Assembly: GCA_017553505.1 (NCBI GenBank)
Contig: JAFZLD010000015.1
Span: 84,964-148,963, forward strand
Origin: Lachnospiraceae bacterium
Lineage (GTDB): Bacteria > Bacillota > Clostridia > Lachnospirales > Lachnospiraceae
DNA length: 64,000 bases
Direction of reading: 5' to 3'
The notes beneath the pieces were generated by a model that had not been told where the DNA came from, made no database searches, and worked only from the letters and a program-made list of their open reading frames with translations. Shown here in pieces: positions 5,800 through 24,112 of this stretch; the stretch's first letter is position 1; each line of letters begins with the position of its first letter. The translations under genes and the position numbers were made by a program.

Positions 5800-5805
5800 A
5801 GTTTA

Positions 5806-6064
5806 AACCGATGAAGGAGAGAAGTAATCTCTTGGATATCAGTCACAGAGAATCGCAGGCGGTGAGATTGCGATACCAAGACAAGAGACGAATGGACTCC
5901 CGAGGGCCGAGGGAAAAGGTTACTTAGTATCGAGGCCGGGGTAAGATTCCCCGTAATCAAAAATCCGCATATGTATGTATGCATGAGCGGGTACGCGTTA
6001 GTACCAAGCAGGGTGGCACCGCAGGATAATTCCTGTCCCGGCAGAAACTGTCGGGACTTTTTTT
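5806..6064 (+). ncRNA. T-box riboswitch, tryptophan-specific
   Basis: The T-box sequence AGGGTGGCACCGC is at 6010-6022, followed by the terminator GTCCCGGCAG / CTGTCGGGAC (6035-6057) and T7. In Stem I the probable specifier codon is TGG at 5893-5895, followed by A, in the context GACGAATGGACTCC, pointing to tRNA-Trp. The tRNA end-pairing tetrad in the T-box is TGGC; its last base would pair with a G discriminator, as tRNA-Trp has. AGTAA near 5834 fits the Stem I S-turn. Uncharged tRNA-Trp should stabilise the antiterminator and switch on the following trpB. T-box identity is certain; the Trp specificity is strongly supported by agreement with the gene. Confidence 0.95.
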
Positions 6065-12880: not shown

Positions 12881-14671
12881 ATGGGAACAGGTAAAAGAAC
12901 TAAAGAAGATAAAAAGCGTTTTTTATCGGGCACGTCGCTGGCAGTAAAGGTATGGTACATTATTGGCGGCGTTTTTTTACTGTTTACCATTATGTTTTCG
13001 ATTTCGGCCCTTGTACTCAGGGAACGTTCCATCAGAGACTACGAAATAAGAGAATCTGAGACCATCCTTAATTCCATGTCCGGAAGTATCACCGCCAATA
13101 TAGAGAATTACAAAGACATTTCGCGACTGGTTATGCTTAACAAGCAGGTGACAGCTTTCTTAAGAGCCCCGGCAGAAGAGGTGGGGGCAGGTCTTAAGAA
13201 CGATACCATTTACGGTATCAACGATATTTTTATGGTTTCAGACTATGTCGATTCCGTATTTATATTCAGGTCAGACAATCATTACGTTACTACCGGTAAA
13301 GGTTTATACCATATTGATTACGATCTTATGGAAGATGAAACCTGGCATGCGCATATCAAGGAAAGGGAAGGCGGTGCGGCAATTTCTTTAAACGGTAACG
13401 GCGCTGTATACAGAGCTAACGGCAACCAGCTACTTACCATCGGCCGCGACATCTATGATATTTATTTGCAGAAGCCTGTAGGCCTGCTTCTTGTCAATAT
13501 TTCCACGGGTATGCTTAAAAGCGCCACCGAGAGTCAGAAGGGTTCAAAAGTCTGCATCGTATCCGAAGACGGCACGCTTCTTGCGGGCGATAAGTCTGTA
13601 AGTGAGTATTTTACCTCCGACATGGCCATCAGGTACACGATGGTTCATAAGTCCGTAAGAGGTAATAAAAATGTGCGAATGATTTCATCTATCAGGGTTC
13701 CCGATACGCCGATTATCGTAATGTGTGCATCCAATGCTTCGGCTCAGTCGATTCCCGTAGAGACCACCGCTGTAATGCTTCTTTTGTTTGTGACCTTTGT
13801 AGTATCGATTTCTTTTGCCGCAGTATTCATTTCAAGGAATATTACGCATCCCATATACACTCTTTCCGCCGAAATGGAGAAGACCAAAGAAGCGGGATGG
13901 CTTAAGAAGATTGACGCCGAGATGCCGCGTAACGAGCTTTCCATGCTCAAAGAAAGCTACAACAGCATTATCGATTACTTAAACGACCTCTTCACAAGGC
14001 TTATAGACAAAGAAAAATCAGTGCAAAAAGCGGAAATGCGAGTGCTTCATGAGCAGATTAAGCCGCACTTCCTGTATAATTCGCTTGAGACCATCAGTTT
14101 TATGGCGCTTGACGCGGGAGCCAAAGACGTTCATTCTGCGCTTGAAACACTCGGAAGCTTTTACAGGAATTTCTTAAGCAAAGGAAACCGAGAGATACCG
14201 CTTAGCCGTGAAATCAGCATTATCAAGGACTATCTGGCGCTTCAGAAGCTAAGGTACGGTGATATAATCAACGATGAGTATGACATTTCGGAGGATACGC
14301 TTGATATAAAGATTCCGAAACTTATTCTTCAGCCGCTTGTCGAGAACAGTATATATCACGGCATCAGGCTTACCGGCGAGCCCGGCACCATCAAGATCAC
14401 ATCGTATCTTGAGGATGACGATATTCATATTATTGTGCGGGATACGGGCGTTGGTATGAGTCAGGACACTATAGATGAATTGCTGGGACGTTCCGAAACA
14501 CCTGTAGAGGACCAGAATGCAAGTTTCGGATTGAAGGGTACCATTGAGAGAATTAAGTATTATTGCGATTATAAAGATGTAGTGAGAATCAGAAGCGAAA
14601 TAGGTGAGTTCACCGAGATAGAGCTTATTATTCCCACCAAGCTTAAGGAGGAAGAACGGGGTAATGTATAG
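12881..14671 (+). CDS. Sensor histidine kinase, YesM/LytS type
   Basis: 596 aa. Transmembrane segments at about residues 25-45 and 296-318 enclose a 250-residue extracellular sensor domain. A HAMP linker follows (RNITHPIYTLSAEM), then the His_kinase domain with the phospho-acceptor H396 in IKPHFLYNSLE, and a C-terminal HATPase domain with LQPLVENSIYHG (N box) and VRDTGVGMS (G1 box). It overlaps the response regulator by 8 bp. Position directly after the importer suggests it senses the imported sugar or its binding protein and controls this locus; that is inference from neighbourhood. Confidence 0.93.
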   Translation: MGTGKRTKEDKKRFLSGTSLAVKVWYIIGGVFLLFTIMFSISALVLRERSIRDYEIRESETILNSMSGSITANIENYKDISRLVMLNKQVTAFLRAPAEEVGAGLKNDTIYGINDIFMVSDYVDSVFIFRSDNHYVTTGKGLYHIDYDLMEDETWHAHIKEREGGAAISLNGNGAVYRANGNQLLTIGRDIYDIYLQKPVGLLLVNISTGMLKSATESQKGSKVCIVSEDGTLLAGDKSVSEYFTSDMAIRYTMVHKSVRGNKNVRMISSIRVPDTPIIVMCASNASAQSIPVETTAVMLLLFVTFVVSISFAAVFISRNITHPIYTLSAEMEKTKEAGWLKKIDAEMPRNELSMLKESYNSIIDYLNDLFTRLIDKEKSVQKAEMRVLHEQIKPHFLYNSLETISFMALDAGAKDVHSALETLGSFYRNFLSKGNREIPLSREISIIKDYLALQKLRYGDIINDEYDISEDTLDIKIPKLILQPLVENSIYHGIRLTGEPGTIKITSYLEDDDIHIIVRDTGVGMSQDTIDELLGRSETPVEDQNASFGLKGTIERIKYYCDYKDVVRIRSEIGEFTEIELIIPTKLKEEERGNV

Positions 14672-15395
14672 GGTTATGCTTATAGACGACGAGCAGTCTG
14701 CAAGAAGTCTGCTTAAAGCGTCCATCAACTGGGAACGCTACGATATGGAAGTGGCGGGCGAGGCCGCAAGCGGAATCGAAGCCATCAACATCATCGACGA
14801 AATCGTTCCGGACATAGCATTCGTAGACATCTCCATGCCCTTTATGAACGGCATAGAGTTTACGGAGGTTGCTACCAAAAGATATCCGGGACTCAAAATA
14901 ATCATCATGACTGCCTTCGATGAATTTGAATACGCAAGGCAGTGCATCAGGCTTCCTGTATTCGATTACATGCTTAAGCCTTTTGTACGTGCGGAGGTTG
15001 AGGAGAACCTTAAGAAGCTCAAAGATATTCTTGACCGTACAGTCAAAGACACGGAGCCTGCGGTAGAAATCGAACCGTCTTCAATCGGCCAGATTAAACG
15101 CTACATTGAAGACAACTACACCGATTCCAAGCTTAACCTTACATCGGTGGCCCAGATTTTCGGCTTCAGCGCCAGCTACTTAAGCCGAAAATTCAAGCAG
15201 GACACCGGCAAGAACTTCGTCGAGTACTTAACCGAGTGCCGCATGAAGCGCGCCATGGAGCTTGCCGCAAGCAACATGAAAATGTTCAGCGCCTCCACCG
15301 AGGTCGGCATCCCCGACCCCAACTACTTCGGCCGTTGCTTCAAAAAATACACCGGTCAAAGCTACTCCGACTACGCCTCCTCCGTCTCCAAATAA
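14664..15395 (+). CDS. Response regulator, YesN type (REC + AraC HTH)
   Basis: 243 aa. The receiver domain (residues 1-120) has the acidic pair DDEQSA, the phospho-acceptor Asp in IAFVDISMPFMNG and the conserved Lys in DYMLKPF. A short linker leads to an AraC-type double helix-turn-helix (from about residue 145; LTSVAQIFGFSASYLSRKFKQDTGKNF and VGIPDPNYFGRCFKKYTGQSYSDY). It is much shorter than the ~500-aa YesN proteins because it lacks their central region. Partner of the overlapping kinase; probable targets are the importer and nearby glycosidase promoters. Confidence 0.93.
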   Translation: MYRVMLIDDEQSARSLLKASINWERYDMEVAGEAASGIEAINIIDEIVPDIAFVDISMPFMNGIEFTEVATKRYPGLKIIIMTAFDEFEYARQCIRLPVFDYMLKPFVRAEVEENLKKLKDILDRTVKDTEPAVEIEPSSIGQIKRYIEDNYTDSKLNLTSVAQIFGFSASYLSRKFKQDTGKNFVEYLTECRMKRAMELAASNMKMFSASTEVGIPDPNYFGRCFKKYTGQSYSDYASSVSK

Positions 15396-15408
15396 CCCTC
15401 ACCCACCC

Positions 15409-15434
15409 GGGCCGACCCACGTCGGCCCTTTTTT
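15409..15434 (+). terminator. Terminator after the response regulator
   Basis: GGGCCGAC (15409-15416) pairs perfectly with GTCGGCCC (15421-15428), 4-nt loop, then six T. Confidence 0.9.
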
Positions 15435-15452
15435 ATTGCTGATGTTATTGGC

Positions 15453-15656
15453 AGCCCATCCCGGGGCGAATGAAAGGGTTCCCGACTGATCGAGACTCAC
15501 GCAAAAGAAAGTTTTACGAGCATCTTGTTTATCCGAGCTATAAAGGCGAGGCCGCTCGGACCGCTACCGCTTAAACTTCATGCGCGGAGTCTTTGGCTTT
15601 TTATTTGCTTCCGCTCGACACAGTCGTCCACCCTTTCATTCGCCCCGGGATGGGCT
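15453..15656 (+). repeat. Structured palindromic element, copy A (candidate ncRNA)
   Basis: A perfect 27-bp terminal inverted repeat (15453-15479 with 15630-15656; core CGGGGCGAATGAAAGGGT) encloses about 150 nt. A second copy (23922-24112, minus strand) aligns over its full length. Internal stems change in a paired way between copies: CCGAGC/GCTCGG here against TCGGGC/GCCCGA there; CTG-TCGA/TCGA-CAG against CTG-CCGA/TCGG-CAG; ACTTC/GGAGT against ACTTC/GAAGT. Loops stay constant (GAAAGTTTTACGA, CTATAAAGRCGAGGCC, CTACCGCTT). No convincing ORF. It lies between a terminator and another structured stretch. I do not recognise a named family; strand is set by alignment, not by known transcription. 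Confidence 0.8.
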
Positions 15657-15690
15657 CAATCTACTGTATGGCAAAGCAAGAGACAGCGAT

Positions 15691-15927
15691 TCGGCGCGGG
15701 CAAAAGTCTTTCACAAAAACTCTATCGGAGCGTCGGCGCTTAGCGGCTGTATTTTAGCCGCTTATGCACGAAAACACTTCTGTTTGAGTTGCAAAAAAGG
15801 GCTGTGCTGCCCCTCAAGCACCACTTTTTGCGTAGGGCAGACCGCAGTCTAAACGGAGCGTCTGACCGGCCGCTACGTGAGATCGAAACGGGAGGGGGTT
15901 TTTGTGGAAGACTTTTGCCCGCGGCGG
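15691..15927. repeat. Second long inverted-repeat structure (element C)
   Basis: A 25-bp stem with one G-U (15696-15720 with 15898-15922; core GGGCAAAAGTCTT) encloses about 177 nt. Inside are the hairpin AGCGGCT/AGCCGCT (742-762 of 15 kb), GCAAAAA/TTTTTGC around GGGC/GCCC (15791-15831), and CAGAC(C)GC/GCGTCTG (about 15837-15862). CGGAGCGTC occurs twice (about 15727 and 15855). It starts 34 bp after element A and ends before the GH10 terminator, so the whole ~560-bp gene-free stretch here is structured sequence. Short ORFs crossing it look incidental. Only one copy is seen, so there is no covariation support. Confidence 0.65.
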
Positions 15928-15956
15928 GGCGCGTCAGGGAGGCCAATATGAGGCAA

Positions 15957-15983
15957 TAAAAAAGGGCCGGCGGTGGCCGGCCT
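15957..15983 (-). terminator. Terminator of the GH10 xylanase gene
   Basis: Read on the minus strand: GGCCGGC, loop CACC, GCCGGCC, then CTTTTTT. It lies 20 bp beyond the xylanase stop codon. Confidence 0.88.
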
Positions 15984-16003
15984 GGGGTGGGCGTTAGGGG
16001 GTG

Positions 16004-18043
16004 TTAGGCGAGGGTGATGAAGAGGTCGTCGATGAACATGTCGGCGTTGCCGTTTGTTTCGACGAAGAGGGCGGCGGCGCGGAGGCCGGCGGGGACGGAG
16101 GCGGGGACGGTGATGTGGGTGAAAGAGCCTGCGGCGGAGGTGAACTCGCCGAGGGGCTCGTAGCCGTCTATGCCGACGCGGATAGTGGTATCCGCGGTTT
16201 TGACGTATAAGGATATGTTGATGTCGCGGCCGATGTAGGTGGAGACGTCGAACTTAACGGTGGCGTCTTTCTCCTGGCGGGATACGCGAAGAGACCTGGT
16301 GCCGGAGGTAACGGCTTCTGTATCCGTGACGGATAAGAAGGGTAAGTGGCCCATGCCACGGATGGCTGCGATGTTGGTGTCGCCTTCAAAGCTTTCTTTG
16401 AGACCGATGAGGTGAAGGGATACATCGTCTACGTAAATAGGGCTAAAGGTGCCTTCGGAAGCCTCTTCTGTGTAGAAGTATACCTTTACGGAGTGACAGT
16501 CTGAAGGAAGAGTGCATTCGCCTTCGAGGTAGCGCCATTCATCGTCGGAACTGTCGACAGTTGCGAAAGACTCAGCCTTGTCGGGGGCATTCGGGTGTTC
16601 GACGTTGAGGGTGACCTTCTTAGCGGGGCTCTTGACCCATGCGCCGATTTTGACGGTCTGGCCTATGAAATCGGAGACGTCAAGGAGTATGCCGCTCCAG
16701 CCGTCGAAACGAGTCTCGAGAGCAAGACAGTGGTTGCCTGAGTGTCCGTCGCCTTCTTTGAGAAGGTCTATGGGGAAGAGACCGCGGTTCTTAAAGCCGA
16801 CGGCAGCGTAATCGAATTTGGTGCCGCTTACGGGCTCGAAGTCGTAGAAGCGGTCAGAAAGATCGAGAACAACGGGCTCGGGCTCACCGAGGCTCTCGCC
16901 AGTAACTGCGTATTTGAGAGCGGTGCAGGCAAGCTTGGGAGATAAATCACCGTTGAAAAGCAGGGGATTGGCGCCGCGAATCCAGGAGTTGTCGTCAGTA
17001 AGACCCCAAACGGTTACGCTTGTAACCTTGCCGCCGTTTTTATTGGCCTTAAGGATTGCTTCAAATAATCTCTTGTAGAAGTCAGCCTGATAGTAGAAGG
17101 CATTGACTCCCGAAGAAGTGCATTTAACATCAAGCTCGGTGATATGAACTTCATCCACGAGAGCAGAGTAGTCCATAATGGCCTGATAATATAAATCTAT
17201 GTCGTTGGTATCGCTCAAATGACCCTGCATACCGATACCGTCGATTAAATGCTCGGAGAATACGCTTCCGTGTTCGGCGGTGGAACGGCCGAGGTTTGCA
17301 ATAATTGCTTTCTTTTTCTCGGGGTCAAACTCATTGTAATCGTTGTAGAAAAGAAGGGGCTTGCCGTAATCGTAACCTGCGGAAATCTCGTCCACAGCGT
17401 CGCGGGCGAAACGGAATGCCCAGTAGATGTAGTCGGGACCGATAATCTCGGACCAGTAGCTCTTGCGCACGCCGGTTTCGGTCTTGTCGGCAAGCTCGAT
17501 GGCTTCGTTGACCACGTCCCAGGCATAGATAATCTGTGCGAAGCCCGACTCATAGGTCCACTTCACGAGATTGTATATATAGCTCTTAATACGCTTAAGA
17601 AGCACTTCGCGGGATACGTAGCACTCGGGATTGAGCTTCTCGAAGAACTTAAGATGCGGGTTGGCTTTTAACTTTTCGGGGTCGGTGGGGATAGTTACGG
17701 CGTTGTAGCCCTTGGCAAAGATTTCCTTGGGACACTGGCTGTGCCATACCATAACGTGACCGCGCACCTTTAAACCGTTGTCTCTTGCAAAAGAAAGCAT
17801 TGCGACAGCGTTTTCATTGGGCACGAAGGGTAAGAATTCCTCGGTGGCATCGGGAGAGTTAAAGCCCATATTGTACATAGGCTTAAGCTCGTTGGCGCAG
17901 GTCATGCTGTTAAACTGCTCGGCCATAAGAGCTTCCTTGGCGGGATTGCCGATTTCGTGATTGGTGAATCGTCCGTTTATGCGCTCACAAGCAACACCGA
18001 TTTTGAAATAATCTTTGTAGATATCTTTGAGTTTAAAATCCAT
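16004..18043 (-). CDS. GH10 endo-1,4-beta-xylanase with two C-terminal CBM_4_9-like domains
   Basis: 679 aa. The GH10 TIM barrel spans about residues 1-380, with acid/base E180 in YAWDVVNEAI and nucleophile E303 in VHITELDVK. Two beta-sandwich domains of the CBM_4_9 type follow (about 405-540 and 545-679; both end in the IYVDDVSL / MFIDDLFI signature). There is no signal peptide: the protein starts MDFKLKDIYKDYFKIG, already in the catalytic fold, with AGGGGG 9 nt before the ATG. It should therefore act in the cytoplasm on imported xylo-oligosaccharides, although CBMs are more usual on secreted enzymes. The last ~250 bp of the gene are noticeably GC-rich. Divergent from the esterase gene. Confidence 0.93.
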   Translation of the reverse strand: MDFKLKDIYKDYFKIGVACERINGRFTNHEIGNPAKEALMAEQFNSMTCANELKPMYNMGFNSPDATEEFLPFVPNENAVAMLSFARDNGLKVRGHVMVWHSQCPKEIFAKGYNAVTIPTDPEKLKANPHLKFFEKLNPECYVSREVLLKRIKSYIYNLVKWTYESGFAQIIYAWDVVNEAIELADKTETGVRKSYWSEIIGPDYIYWAFRFARDAVDEISAGYDYGKPLLFYNDYNEFDPEKKKAIIANLGRSTAEHGSVFSEHLIDGIGMQGHLSDTNDIDLYYQAIMDYSALVDEVHITELDVKCTSSGVNAFYYQADFYKRLFEAILKANKNGGKVTSVTVWGLTDDNSWIRGANPLLFNGDLSPKLACTALKYAVTGESLGEPEPVVLDLSDRFYDFEPVSGTKFDYAAVGFKNRGLFPIDLLKEGDGHSGNHCLALETRFDGWSGILLDVSDFIGQTVKIGAWVKSPAKKVTLNVEHPNAPDKAESFATVDSSDDEWRYLEGECTLPSDCHSVKVYFYTEEASEGTFSPIYVDDVSLHLIGLKESFEGDTNIAAIRGMGHLPFLSVTDTEAVTSGTRSLRVSRQEKDATVKFDVSTYIGRDINISLYVKTADTTIRVGIDGYEPLGEFTSAAGSFTHITVPASVPAGLRAAALFVETNGNADMFIDDLFITLA

Positions 18044-23921: not shown

Positions 23922-24112
23922 GCCGCGGGGCGAATATAAAGAGATTAGCTGGGCCGAAGCGGGAGCGATAAAAAACCACAGACTTCGCTCGTGAAGTTCA
24001 AGCGGTAGAGTGTCGGGCGGCCTCGTCTTTATAGCCCGACTGAACAAAACGATCGTAAAACTTTCTTCGAGGGAGTCTCGGTCAGTTAATCTCTTTATAT
24101 TCGCCCCGTGGT
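23922..24112 (-). repeat. Structured palindromic element, copy B (candidate ncRNA)
   Basis: Perfect 22-bp terminal inverted repeat (23926-23947 with 24087-24108), extending to 25 bp with G-U pairs. Read on the minus strand it aligns with copy A over the whole length. The outermost bases CGGGGCGAAT are identical, but the inner stem differs (ATAAAGAGATTA against GAAAGGGT) and both copies remain fully paired. The hairpin TCGGGC/GCCCGA with loop TATAAAGACGAGGCC matches A's CCGAGC/GCTCGG. It lies in a gene-free gap of about 490 bp (23778-24267), 145 bp upstream of the GNAT gene and 100 bp upstream of the HDOD promoter. Confidence 0.8.

What the first reader, a model, noticed from the sequence alone, without database searches (positions are those of the whole stretch)
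15453..15656. Undescribed structured element, copy A: terminal stem and internal hairpins covary with a second copy
The element has a perfect 27-bp terminal stem and at least three internal helices. Aligned with copy B (23922-24112, minus strand) it shows compensatory changes at several pairs: CCGAGC/GCTCGG against TCGGGC/GCCCGA, TCGA/TCGA against CCGA/TCGG, GGAGT against GAAGT opposite ACTTC, and a wholly different yet fully paired inner terminal stem. Loop sequences (GAAAGTTTTACGA, CTATAAAGRCGAGGCC, CTACCGCTT) are nearly unchanged. Conserved loops with changing but paired stems are the mark of a selected RNA fold. I cannot match it to a known class.
Basis: partly seen in the sequence, partly recalled or inferred. 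Interest (0 to 1): 0.88.

Follow-up and report, generated by a model that had tools for sequence, protein, structure and literature searches.

The report
Dispersed RNA-like hairpin repeat, variable arms
A 200-base hairpin between genes of a Lachnospiraceae bacterium belongs to a small set of repeated, probably mobile, hairpin elements whose cores stay alike while their outer arms differ from site to site yet still pair, which may tell more about how long hairpins evolve than about gene regulation.

Summary
Copy A has a perfect 27-bp terminal stem and shares internal helices with copy B. Nine intact copies give 35 of 62 pairs changed on both sides (0/500 shuffles); nothing in Rfam matches. 'A selected RNA class' is only partly right. 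It is one family ('type I', 14 loci) of dispersed intergenic hairpin repeats, found in 3 of 18 genomes of the genus and in no other genus searched. It often sits beside a commoner repeat ('type II', window 15690-15935), whose apical hairpin recurs in 13 of 299 Lachnospiraceae genomes. Cores are exchanged between loci, blocks invert, and one clean element-free site lacks the arms too. Arms are locus-specific (mean identity 54% against 89% for cores), yet 240 of 255 arm positions are Watson-Crick and none is G-U. Paired changes outnumber one-sided ones about 24:1; SRP RNA gives 2:1. That fits stems rewritten as pairs by DNA-level copying (template switching) or block exchange; strand biases also point to RNA-level selection. 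Best reading: a non-autonomous, MITE-like hairpin element whose transcript would fold, a new variant of a known kind. Its mobiliser and its transcription are not shown.

The parts
15453..15656 (.). Type I hairpin element, copy A (whole)
   Evidence: CM R1 match 15447-15662
15453..15479 (.). copy-specific left arm (P1), 27 nt; identical 27 nt stand alone at the orthologous site G002:C71:21720-21746
15630..15656 (.). copy-specific right arm (P1), perfect complement
15484..15494 (.). helix 2, 5' side (GACTGATCGAG), partner 15614-15625
15614..15625 (.). helix 2, 3' side
15501..15511 (.). helix 3, 5' side (GCAAAAGAAAG), partner 15597-15608; two invariant G-U pairs if read on plus
15597..15608 (.). 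helix 3, 3' side
15532..15560 (.). helix 6 hairpin with near-invariant loop (TATAAAGRCGAGGCC region)
15561..15570 (.). conserved CCGCTACCGC 3' of the hairpin; CCGCTAC or a near variant also follows the apical hairpin in many relatives of type II
   Evidence: by eye
23922..24112 (.). Type I hairpin element, copy B (aligned with A when read on the minus strand), no type II beside it
15690..15935 (+). Type II hairpin element adjoining copy A; further copies in G000, G002 and G013
15409..15428 (+). terminator-like hairpin downstream of the left gene; with 15965-15982 an inverted pair around the block
15965..15982 (-). terminator-like hairpin downstream of the right (convergent) gene

Best explanation
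It is a non-autonomous, MITE-like palindromic interspersed repeat. A folded core of about 120 nt with near-invariant loops is framed by 25-33 bp arms that differ from locus to locus but pair almost perfectly. It occurs alone or beside a second hairpin repeat (type II), in intergenic regions and often next to terminators. Shown: dispersal, presence/absence between sister species, opposite orientation at the same locus, mosaic cores, an element-free site that lacks the arms as well, and pairing of arms far beyond chance. Inferred: (i) an enzyme acting in trans inserts it at the DNA level, recognising the folded core rather than arm sequence; (ii) replication template switching across the hairpin, plus block exchange, rewrites both sides of a stem at once and so keeps the arms paired while they drift; (iii) when transcribed by read-through it folds in the RNA, and RNA-level selection adds a strand bias. 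No further function is needed to explain it, though none is excluded.
For: 14 type I loci: G000 4, G002 5 (one degenerate, one truncated), G013 5 (one split over two contigs). Orthologous loci carry I, II, I+II or nothing. Element-free site: G000:C5 near 103979 lacks the block that G013 C37/C44 carries, arms included; G002:C59 lacks it too. The C7 copy is a mosaic: its core is nearer B (86/92) than its ortholog (82/92), while the segments just outside the core match the ortholog (18/22, 32/34) and not B (8/22, 16/34). At locus 3 the same type II arms frame two different interiors. Arms of 9 intact copies: 240 of 255 Watson-Crick, 8 A-C, 7 other, 0 G-U; mean arm identity 0.54 (shuffled baseline 0.39), core 0.89. 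Pairs changed on both sides against one side: 197:8 in the arm helix and 142:6 in helices 3-7 over 36 copy pairs. SRP RNA control: 3117:1538 over 30 loci of relatives, 341:290 within the genus, no difference among the three host species. Template switching as a maker of perfect stems: PMC8794818 (abstract and start of the text); arm homogenisation and spacer inversion: PMC8604942 (abstract).
Against: No transposase or autonomous parent was found, and no convincing target-site duplication. Arms are not conserved between copies, unlike ordinary terminal inverted repeats. The strand bias of arm mismatches (type I A-C 8, G-U 0; type II G-U 21, A-C 1) and of energies (minus better in 9 of 9 type I, plus better in 22 of 22 type II) points to RNA-level selection, which pure DNA copying would not give. 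Copy-pair counts are not independent events. Arms of different loci may not be homologous: 210 of 797 arm-helix comparisons had no standard pair in at least one copy, a sign of poor alignment, and this inflates 'both changed'. Whether an element-free site is ancestral or a loss was not established with an outgroup.
Confidence: 0.55

Rival explanations
1. A functional structured RNA family (regulatory or stand-alone): selection keeps the fold while sequence drifts.
For: 93.1% of cells paired, 35 of 62 pairs changed on both sides, 0/500 shuffles. Strand bias of mismatches and energies. Conserved loops. The apical hairpin of type II changes as pairs across genera.
Against: Narrow distribution of type I. 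No sigma-70-like promoter match within 15350-16050 (weak test). Different element types stand at the same locus in sister species. Double to one-sided changes about 24:1 against 2:1 in SRP RNA. Strand conflict: helix 3 has two G-U pairs in all nine copies only on plus, arms favour minus.
Confidence: 0.25
2. The terminal stem is made at insertion: one arm is host target DNA and the other an inverted copy of it (a guide or snap-back copy).
For: G002:C71 has exactly one 27-nt arm of copy A and no other part of it. At locus 6 the outer 16 nt of the G013 left arm also stand in G000, which lacks type I there.
Against: At G000:C5 against G013 C37/C44 no arm is present in the element-free site. By eye none is present at G013:C7 and G002:C25 (locus 3) or at the G002 site of copy B, though those flanks are diverged. 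Several arms share an inner motif near GAATATAAAGG. Single arms can be remnants of deletion.
Confidence: 0.07
3. Ordinary bidirectional terminator or 3'-end hairpins, not mobile.
For: Several copies lie just downstream of terminator-like hairpins, copy A between convergent genes.
Against: Copy B lies between divergent ORFs. A conserved multi-helix core of about 120 nt is not needed for termination. Presence/absence and mosaic cores.
Confidence: 0.08

Closest known systems
bcr1-bcr18 repeats of the Bacillus cereus group (PMC3446304, passages read; the primary papers not read)
   Same: Families of intergenic repeats in Gram-positive genomes; some MITE-like (bcr1-3), some with conserved secondary structure thought to act as RNA (bcr10, bcr18); 84 of 165 and 62 of 155 copies in two strains were part of an mRNA.
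   Different: No sequence link was tested. Here arms are locus-specific while the core is conserved, and two families stand side by side. Transcription is unknown.
ERIC/IRU, NEMIS/Correia, RUP and other bacterial MITEs (PMC2229807, passages read)
   Same: About 100-200 bp, multi-copy, transcripts predicted to fold into long stem-loops; for ERIC the orientation matters for effects on mRNA.
   Different: Most of those have short terminal inverted repeats, TA ends and target duplications; here the arms are long and not conserved and no clear duplication was seen.
Template-switch-maintained RNA hairpins (PMC8794818, abstract and start of the text read)
   Same: Perfect stems and multibase compensatory changes made in one event.
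   Different: Described there for RNA genes with reconstructed ancestral histories; here it would act on dispersed repeats, and no ancestral reconstruction was done.
REP elements (PMC3733652, search listing only; the RAYT link is recalled)
   Same: Dispersed extragenic palindromes.
   Different: REPs are 20-40 bp with sequence tags at one end; here about 200 nt with a structured core. Y1 transposase domains in G000 and G013 but none in G002.

Membership tests
Bacterial MITE (ERIC/NEMIS/RUP/bcr1 kind) | short, non-coding, multi-copy, intergenic | tested here: met
   14 type I loci, about 200 nt; coding was judged only by eye from ORF lists at copies A, B, C51a, C51b, C5 and C121
Bacterial MITE (ERIC/NEMIS/RUP/bcr1 kind) | terminal inverted repeats conserved between copies | tested here: not met
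   arms pair within a copy but average 54% identity between nine copies
Bacterial MITE (ERIC/NEMIS/RUP/bcr1 kind) | target-site duplication / TA ends | tested here: inconclusive
   looked for by eye: a possible CTATG repeat at locus 11 only; none clear at locus 3 or at G000:C5 against G013 C37/C44
Bacterial MITE (ERIC/NEMIS/RUP/bcr1 kind) | presence/absence polymorphism between close relatives | tested here: met
   G000:C5 and G002:C59 lack the block of G013 C37/C44
Bacterial MITE (ERIC/NEMIS/RUP/bcr1 kind) | related autonomous element with the same ends | not tested
   only Y1_Tnp and RVT_1 were sought; DDE transposases and recombinases were not
Known Rfam family | match at or above a gathering score | tested here: not met
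   the whole window and six further loci give one T-box each in the window and in L139 and nothing on the elements; permissive scans give only hits below the gathering score
Retroelement / SINE-like | reverse transcriptase in the genome | tested here: not met
   RVT_1 in 0 of 3 host genomes, controls ring in 3 of 14
REP/RAYT | Y1 transposase present with the repeats (recalled feature) | tested here: not met
   Y1_Tnp in 2 of 3 host genomes, none found in G002, a draft with 5 type I loci
Structured RNA under selection | strand-specific tolerance of G-U over A-C | tested here: inconclusive
   G-U:A-C on plus: type I arms 0:8 (minus-like), helix 3 20:0 (plus-like); type II arms 21:1 (plus); other genera 13:6; SRP control 150:2
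Structured RNA under selection | transcript | not testable with these tools
   no expression data

The most novel reading that the evidence does not exclude
A widespread Lachnospiraceae class of hairpin elements (type I, type II and the CTTAGCG-hairpin repeats of other genera) whose outer stems are rewritten as matched pairs in single DNA-level events. Each locus then gets its own paired arm: an ongoing natural demonstration of template-switch evolution of stems, or of a locus-specific tag, and a warning that covariation alone does not prove RNA selection.
Probability: 0.3. Interest if true: 0.72.

Novelty: new variant of a known kind. Interest (0 to 1): 0.5.

Why it matters
Covariation is the usual proof of a selected RNA structure. 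Here is a natural set of hairpins in which paired changes are nearly all double, cores look exchanged between loci, and the arms of type I carry no G-U pair on the strand given, so the usual proof could mislead without a control. Two of the host species are named assemblies (RGIG6987, YSD2013), close enough to the window's genome to look for single events, which makes a template-switch origin of long stems testable. If the elements are mobile by an unknown route, recognition of a conserved folded core with free arms would also be new.

Tried and rejected
Inverted target duplication (guide-like arm): suggested by G002:C71, dropped as a general rule. Retroelement: no RT domain found. Y1 mobilisation: not consistent. 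Phage or plasmid origin: only 26-38-nt matches in the apical-hairpin region of type II in 4 of 50,697 phage records, none in plasmids; the single IMG/VR pattern hit lies inside a long ORF and looks like chance. The C5 copy first looked like a 5-kb element because its nearest exact repeat motif lay 5 kb off; the ORFs between look like ordinary genes by eye. Assigning type I to one strand: not settled. Literature: one search found 0 papers; 56 listed 3 of 3 and 58 listed 10 of 33, none about these repeats by title and start of abstract; one search listed 8 of 32,443 and gave nothing of use; one search gave the MITE review. Only an open-access library was searched. PMC2267715 (passages) lists stem-loop repeat families in 40 bacterial genomes; I saw no Lachnospiraceae among the lines shown.

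Rows dropped before counts: arms and strand energies of type I use 9 of 14 loci (dropped: C121 degenerate, C62 truncated, C49, C47 and C37/C44 cut by contig ends). One search also printed C121 (5 matched bases), which I subtracted; its shuffled identity baseline includes C121. Type II arms use 21 of 28 matched stretches and energies 22 of 28; the rest are cut by contig ends or failed the anchor search; one of the 21 (L029_5385) did not align on its true arms. About half of the 21 type II G-U cells look like one inherited site. Other-genera arms keep only alignments scoring 13 or more. SRP control: the 30 loci returned, of 39 matches in 37 of 40 genomes.

Full report
What is there. Copy A (15453-15656) lies in the 608-bp gap between two convergent ORFs (14664-15395 plus and 16004-18043 minus). 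Its outer 27 bases on each side are exact complements, and the fold is far below shuffles on both strands. Copy B (23922-24112) folds likewise and lies between two divergent ORFs. Rfam has no match there on either strand, at gathering or permissive threshold beyond chance-level scores (the permissive scan was run on copy A only).

More copies. blastn over 97 genomes finds matches in three, all of the window's genus: G000 (the window's own), G002 and G013, that is 3 of the 18 genus members. With a covariance model built from nine copies, the fetched stretches and the own genome give 14 loci: 4 in G000, 5 in G002 (one degenerate, one truncated) and 5 in G013, where two contig ends are halves of one element (inferred from their arms and from the contiguous G000 locus). 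Over 397 genomes of the family, searched with stricter filters, only the window's own has a match (G002 and G013 were apparently not in that draw). A pattern scan of GTDB contigs hits only Lachnospiraceae bacterium RGIG6987 (sheep rumen MAG) and Lachnospiraceae bacterium YSD2013 (which may omit the window's own records). Several G013 contigs end inside the core, as expected of a repeat.

A second repeat beside it. Right of copy A lies another hairpin, type II (15690-15935; -126.7 kcal/mol, z -7.25). It is commoner in the same three genomes; 7 of 60 relatives match at E 0.001, but the four others match only over 26-39 nt in or next to the apical hairpin. That apical hairpin belongs to multi-copy hairpin elements of other genera. 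As a pattern with up to 2 mismatches it occurs in 13 of 299 family genomes, against 0 for the reversed control, and its stem changes as pairs (GCGGCU/AGCCGC, GCGCCU/AGGCGC, GCGACU/AGUCGC). Many of those relatives also have long, mostly complementary outer arms that differ from copy to copy. In type I and in many of these relatives the hairpin is followed by CCGCTAC or a near variant, so type I may be a distant cousin; that is read by eye and is not a test.

Mobility and exchange. Flanks were matched between the three species. At orthologous loci one species may have type I, another type II, another both or neither. The clearest case: G000:C5 near 103979 is contiguous where G013 has a block with type I and what looks like a degenerate type II; the whole block, arms included, is absent, and G002:C59 lacks it as well. 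No outgroup was used to tell gain from loss. At the copy A locus, G002 has neither repeat but keeps one 27-nt arm; in G013 two contig ends show type II in the opposite orientation between the two terminators and no type I, as far as they reach. Blocks are also inverted relative to flanks in C7 against C51a and C45, and in C11a against G013:C51. At locus 3 identical type II arms frame two different interiors in G000 and G013. Copy C7 has a core nearer to B (86 of 92) than to its ortholog in G013 (82 of 92), while the segments just outside the core match its ortholog (18 of 22 and 32 of 34) and not B (8 of 22 and 16 of 34). So cores seem to move between loci while arms stay. In G002 C51b the composite of I and II is itself enclosed by an inverted repeat matching in 37 of 39 columns; at copy A the enclosing pair is the two terminators; 4 of the 6 composites tested show no such outer pair above shuffles.

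The arms. In nine intact copies, 240 of 255 arm positions are Watson-Crick, 8 are A-C, 7 other, none G-U; two copies (A and C45) are perfect. A copy's left arm never pairs comparably with another copy's right arm (best score 13, own scores 21 to 27). Mean arm identity between copies is 0.54, shuffled baseline 0.39, core 0.89. Even copies at one locus differ: G013 C45 and G002 C51a, whose left flanks are 97.8% identical, share 97% of the core but 47% of the left-arm columns.

How do they stay paired? On the plus-strand consensus 93.1% of cells pair and 35 of 62 pairs change on both sides (0 of 500 shuffles). Over 36 copy pairs, changes on both sides outnumber one-sided changes 197 to 8 in the arm helix and 142 to 6 in helices 3-7; a further 210 arm comparisons had no standard pair in one copy or both. 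As a yardstick I took SRP RNA from 30 loci of relatives: 3117 to 1538 overall, 341 to 290 in 14 members of the genus, and no difference among the three host species. The elements therefore seem to change almost only in matched pairs, and fast. That is what template switching across a hairpin, or exchange of whole hairpins, would give; PMC8794818 (abstract and start of text) describes it for RNA genes, and PMC8604942 (abstract) adds spacer inversion. Caution: copy pairs are not independent, B and C7 share one block of core changes, and arms of different loci may not be homologous.

RNA-level selection is not excluded. Mismatches are strand-biased: type I arms 0 G-U to 8 A-C (the minus-strand RNA would see 8 G-U), type II arms 21 to 1, other genera 13 to 6. 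Energies agree: minus is better in 9 of 9 type I copies and beyond the shuffle mean in 9 of 9 (barely for copy A); plus is better in 22 of 22 type II copies and beyond the shuffle mean in 19 of 22. The SRP control shows 150 G-U to 2 A-C. Some of these cells are inherited, so the type I test rests on about six events (my estimate). Helix 3 speaks the other way, with two G-U pairs in all nine copies that would be broken on minus; over the whole structure plus pairs 93.1% and minus 90.9% of cells. So type I's strand is open, and type II looks like a plus-strand RNA.

Partners. No reverse transcriptase domain in the three genomes. Y1 transposase domains in G000 and G013 but none found in G002. No plasmid match and only short apical matches in phage records. 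DDE transposases and tyrosine recombinases were not searched.

Verdict. The best account is a MITE-like hairpin repeat, often composite, that would fold as RNA and whose locus-specific arms are kept paired by more than ordinary point mutation. It resembles bcr and ERIC/NEMIS elements (PMC3446304 and PMC2229807, passages read) in kind, but fails the conserved-terminal-repeat test, so I file it as a variant, not a member. Function beyond persistence is not shown.

Noticed in passing
window 15690-15935 and G000/G002/G013 loci: Type II hairpin repeat; an alternative interior (IIb, extra hairpins) is framed by the same arms at locus 3.
   Followed up: partly
L113-L116, L117-L146: Hairpins with CTTAGCGNCTGTATTTTAGNCGCTTA in 13 of 299 Lachnospiraceae genomes, with similar ends (CAGTTGTG ... 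CACAACGTCCG or near) in several G025 and G097 copies and other flanks in G019, G032, G101, G316.
   Followed up: partly
window 15409-15982 against G013 C12/C22: The stretch between two convergent, similar terminators appears inverted between species, which suggests recombination through terminator hairpins.
   Followed up: partly
window 5802-6043: T-box leader just above the Rfam gathering score (93.4 against 93 bits).
   Followed up: no
L158 (G002:C59): G002 has other palindromic stretches (near ACACACATTTTGTGG and ATGCTCGACATCATGAACC) where G013 carries type I, so the same gap hosts different hairpins.
   Followed up: no
L101, L108, L110, L107: Type II copies with quite different arm sequences (for example CAAGCGCCGGGGGCCGGCCGGCATTGT), still with 26 or more paired positions.
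   Followed up: partly
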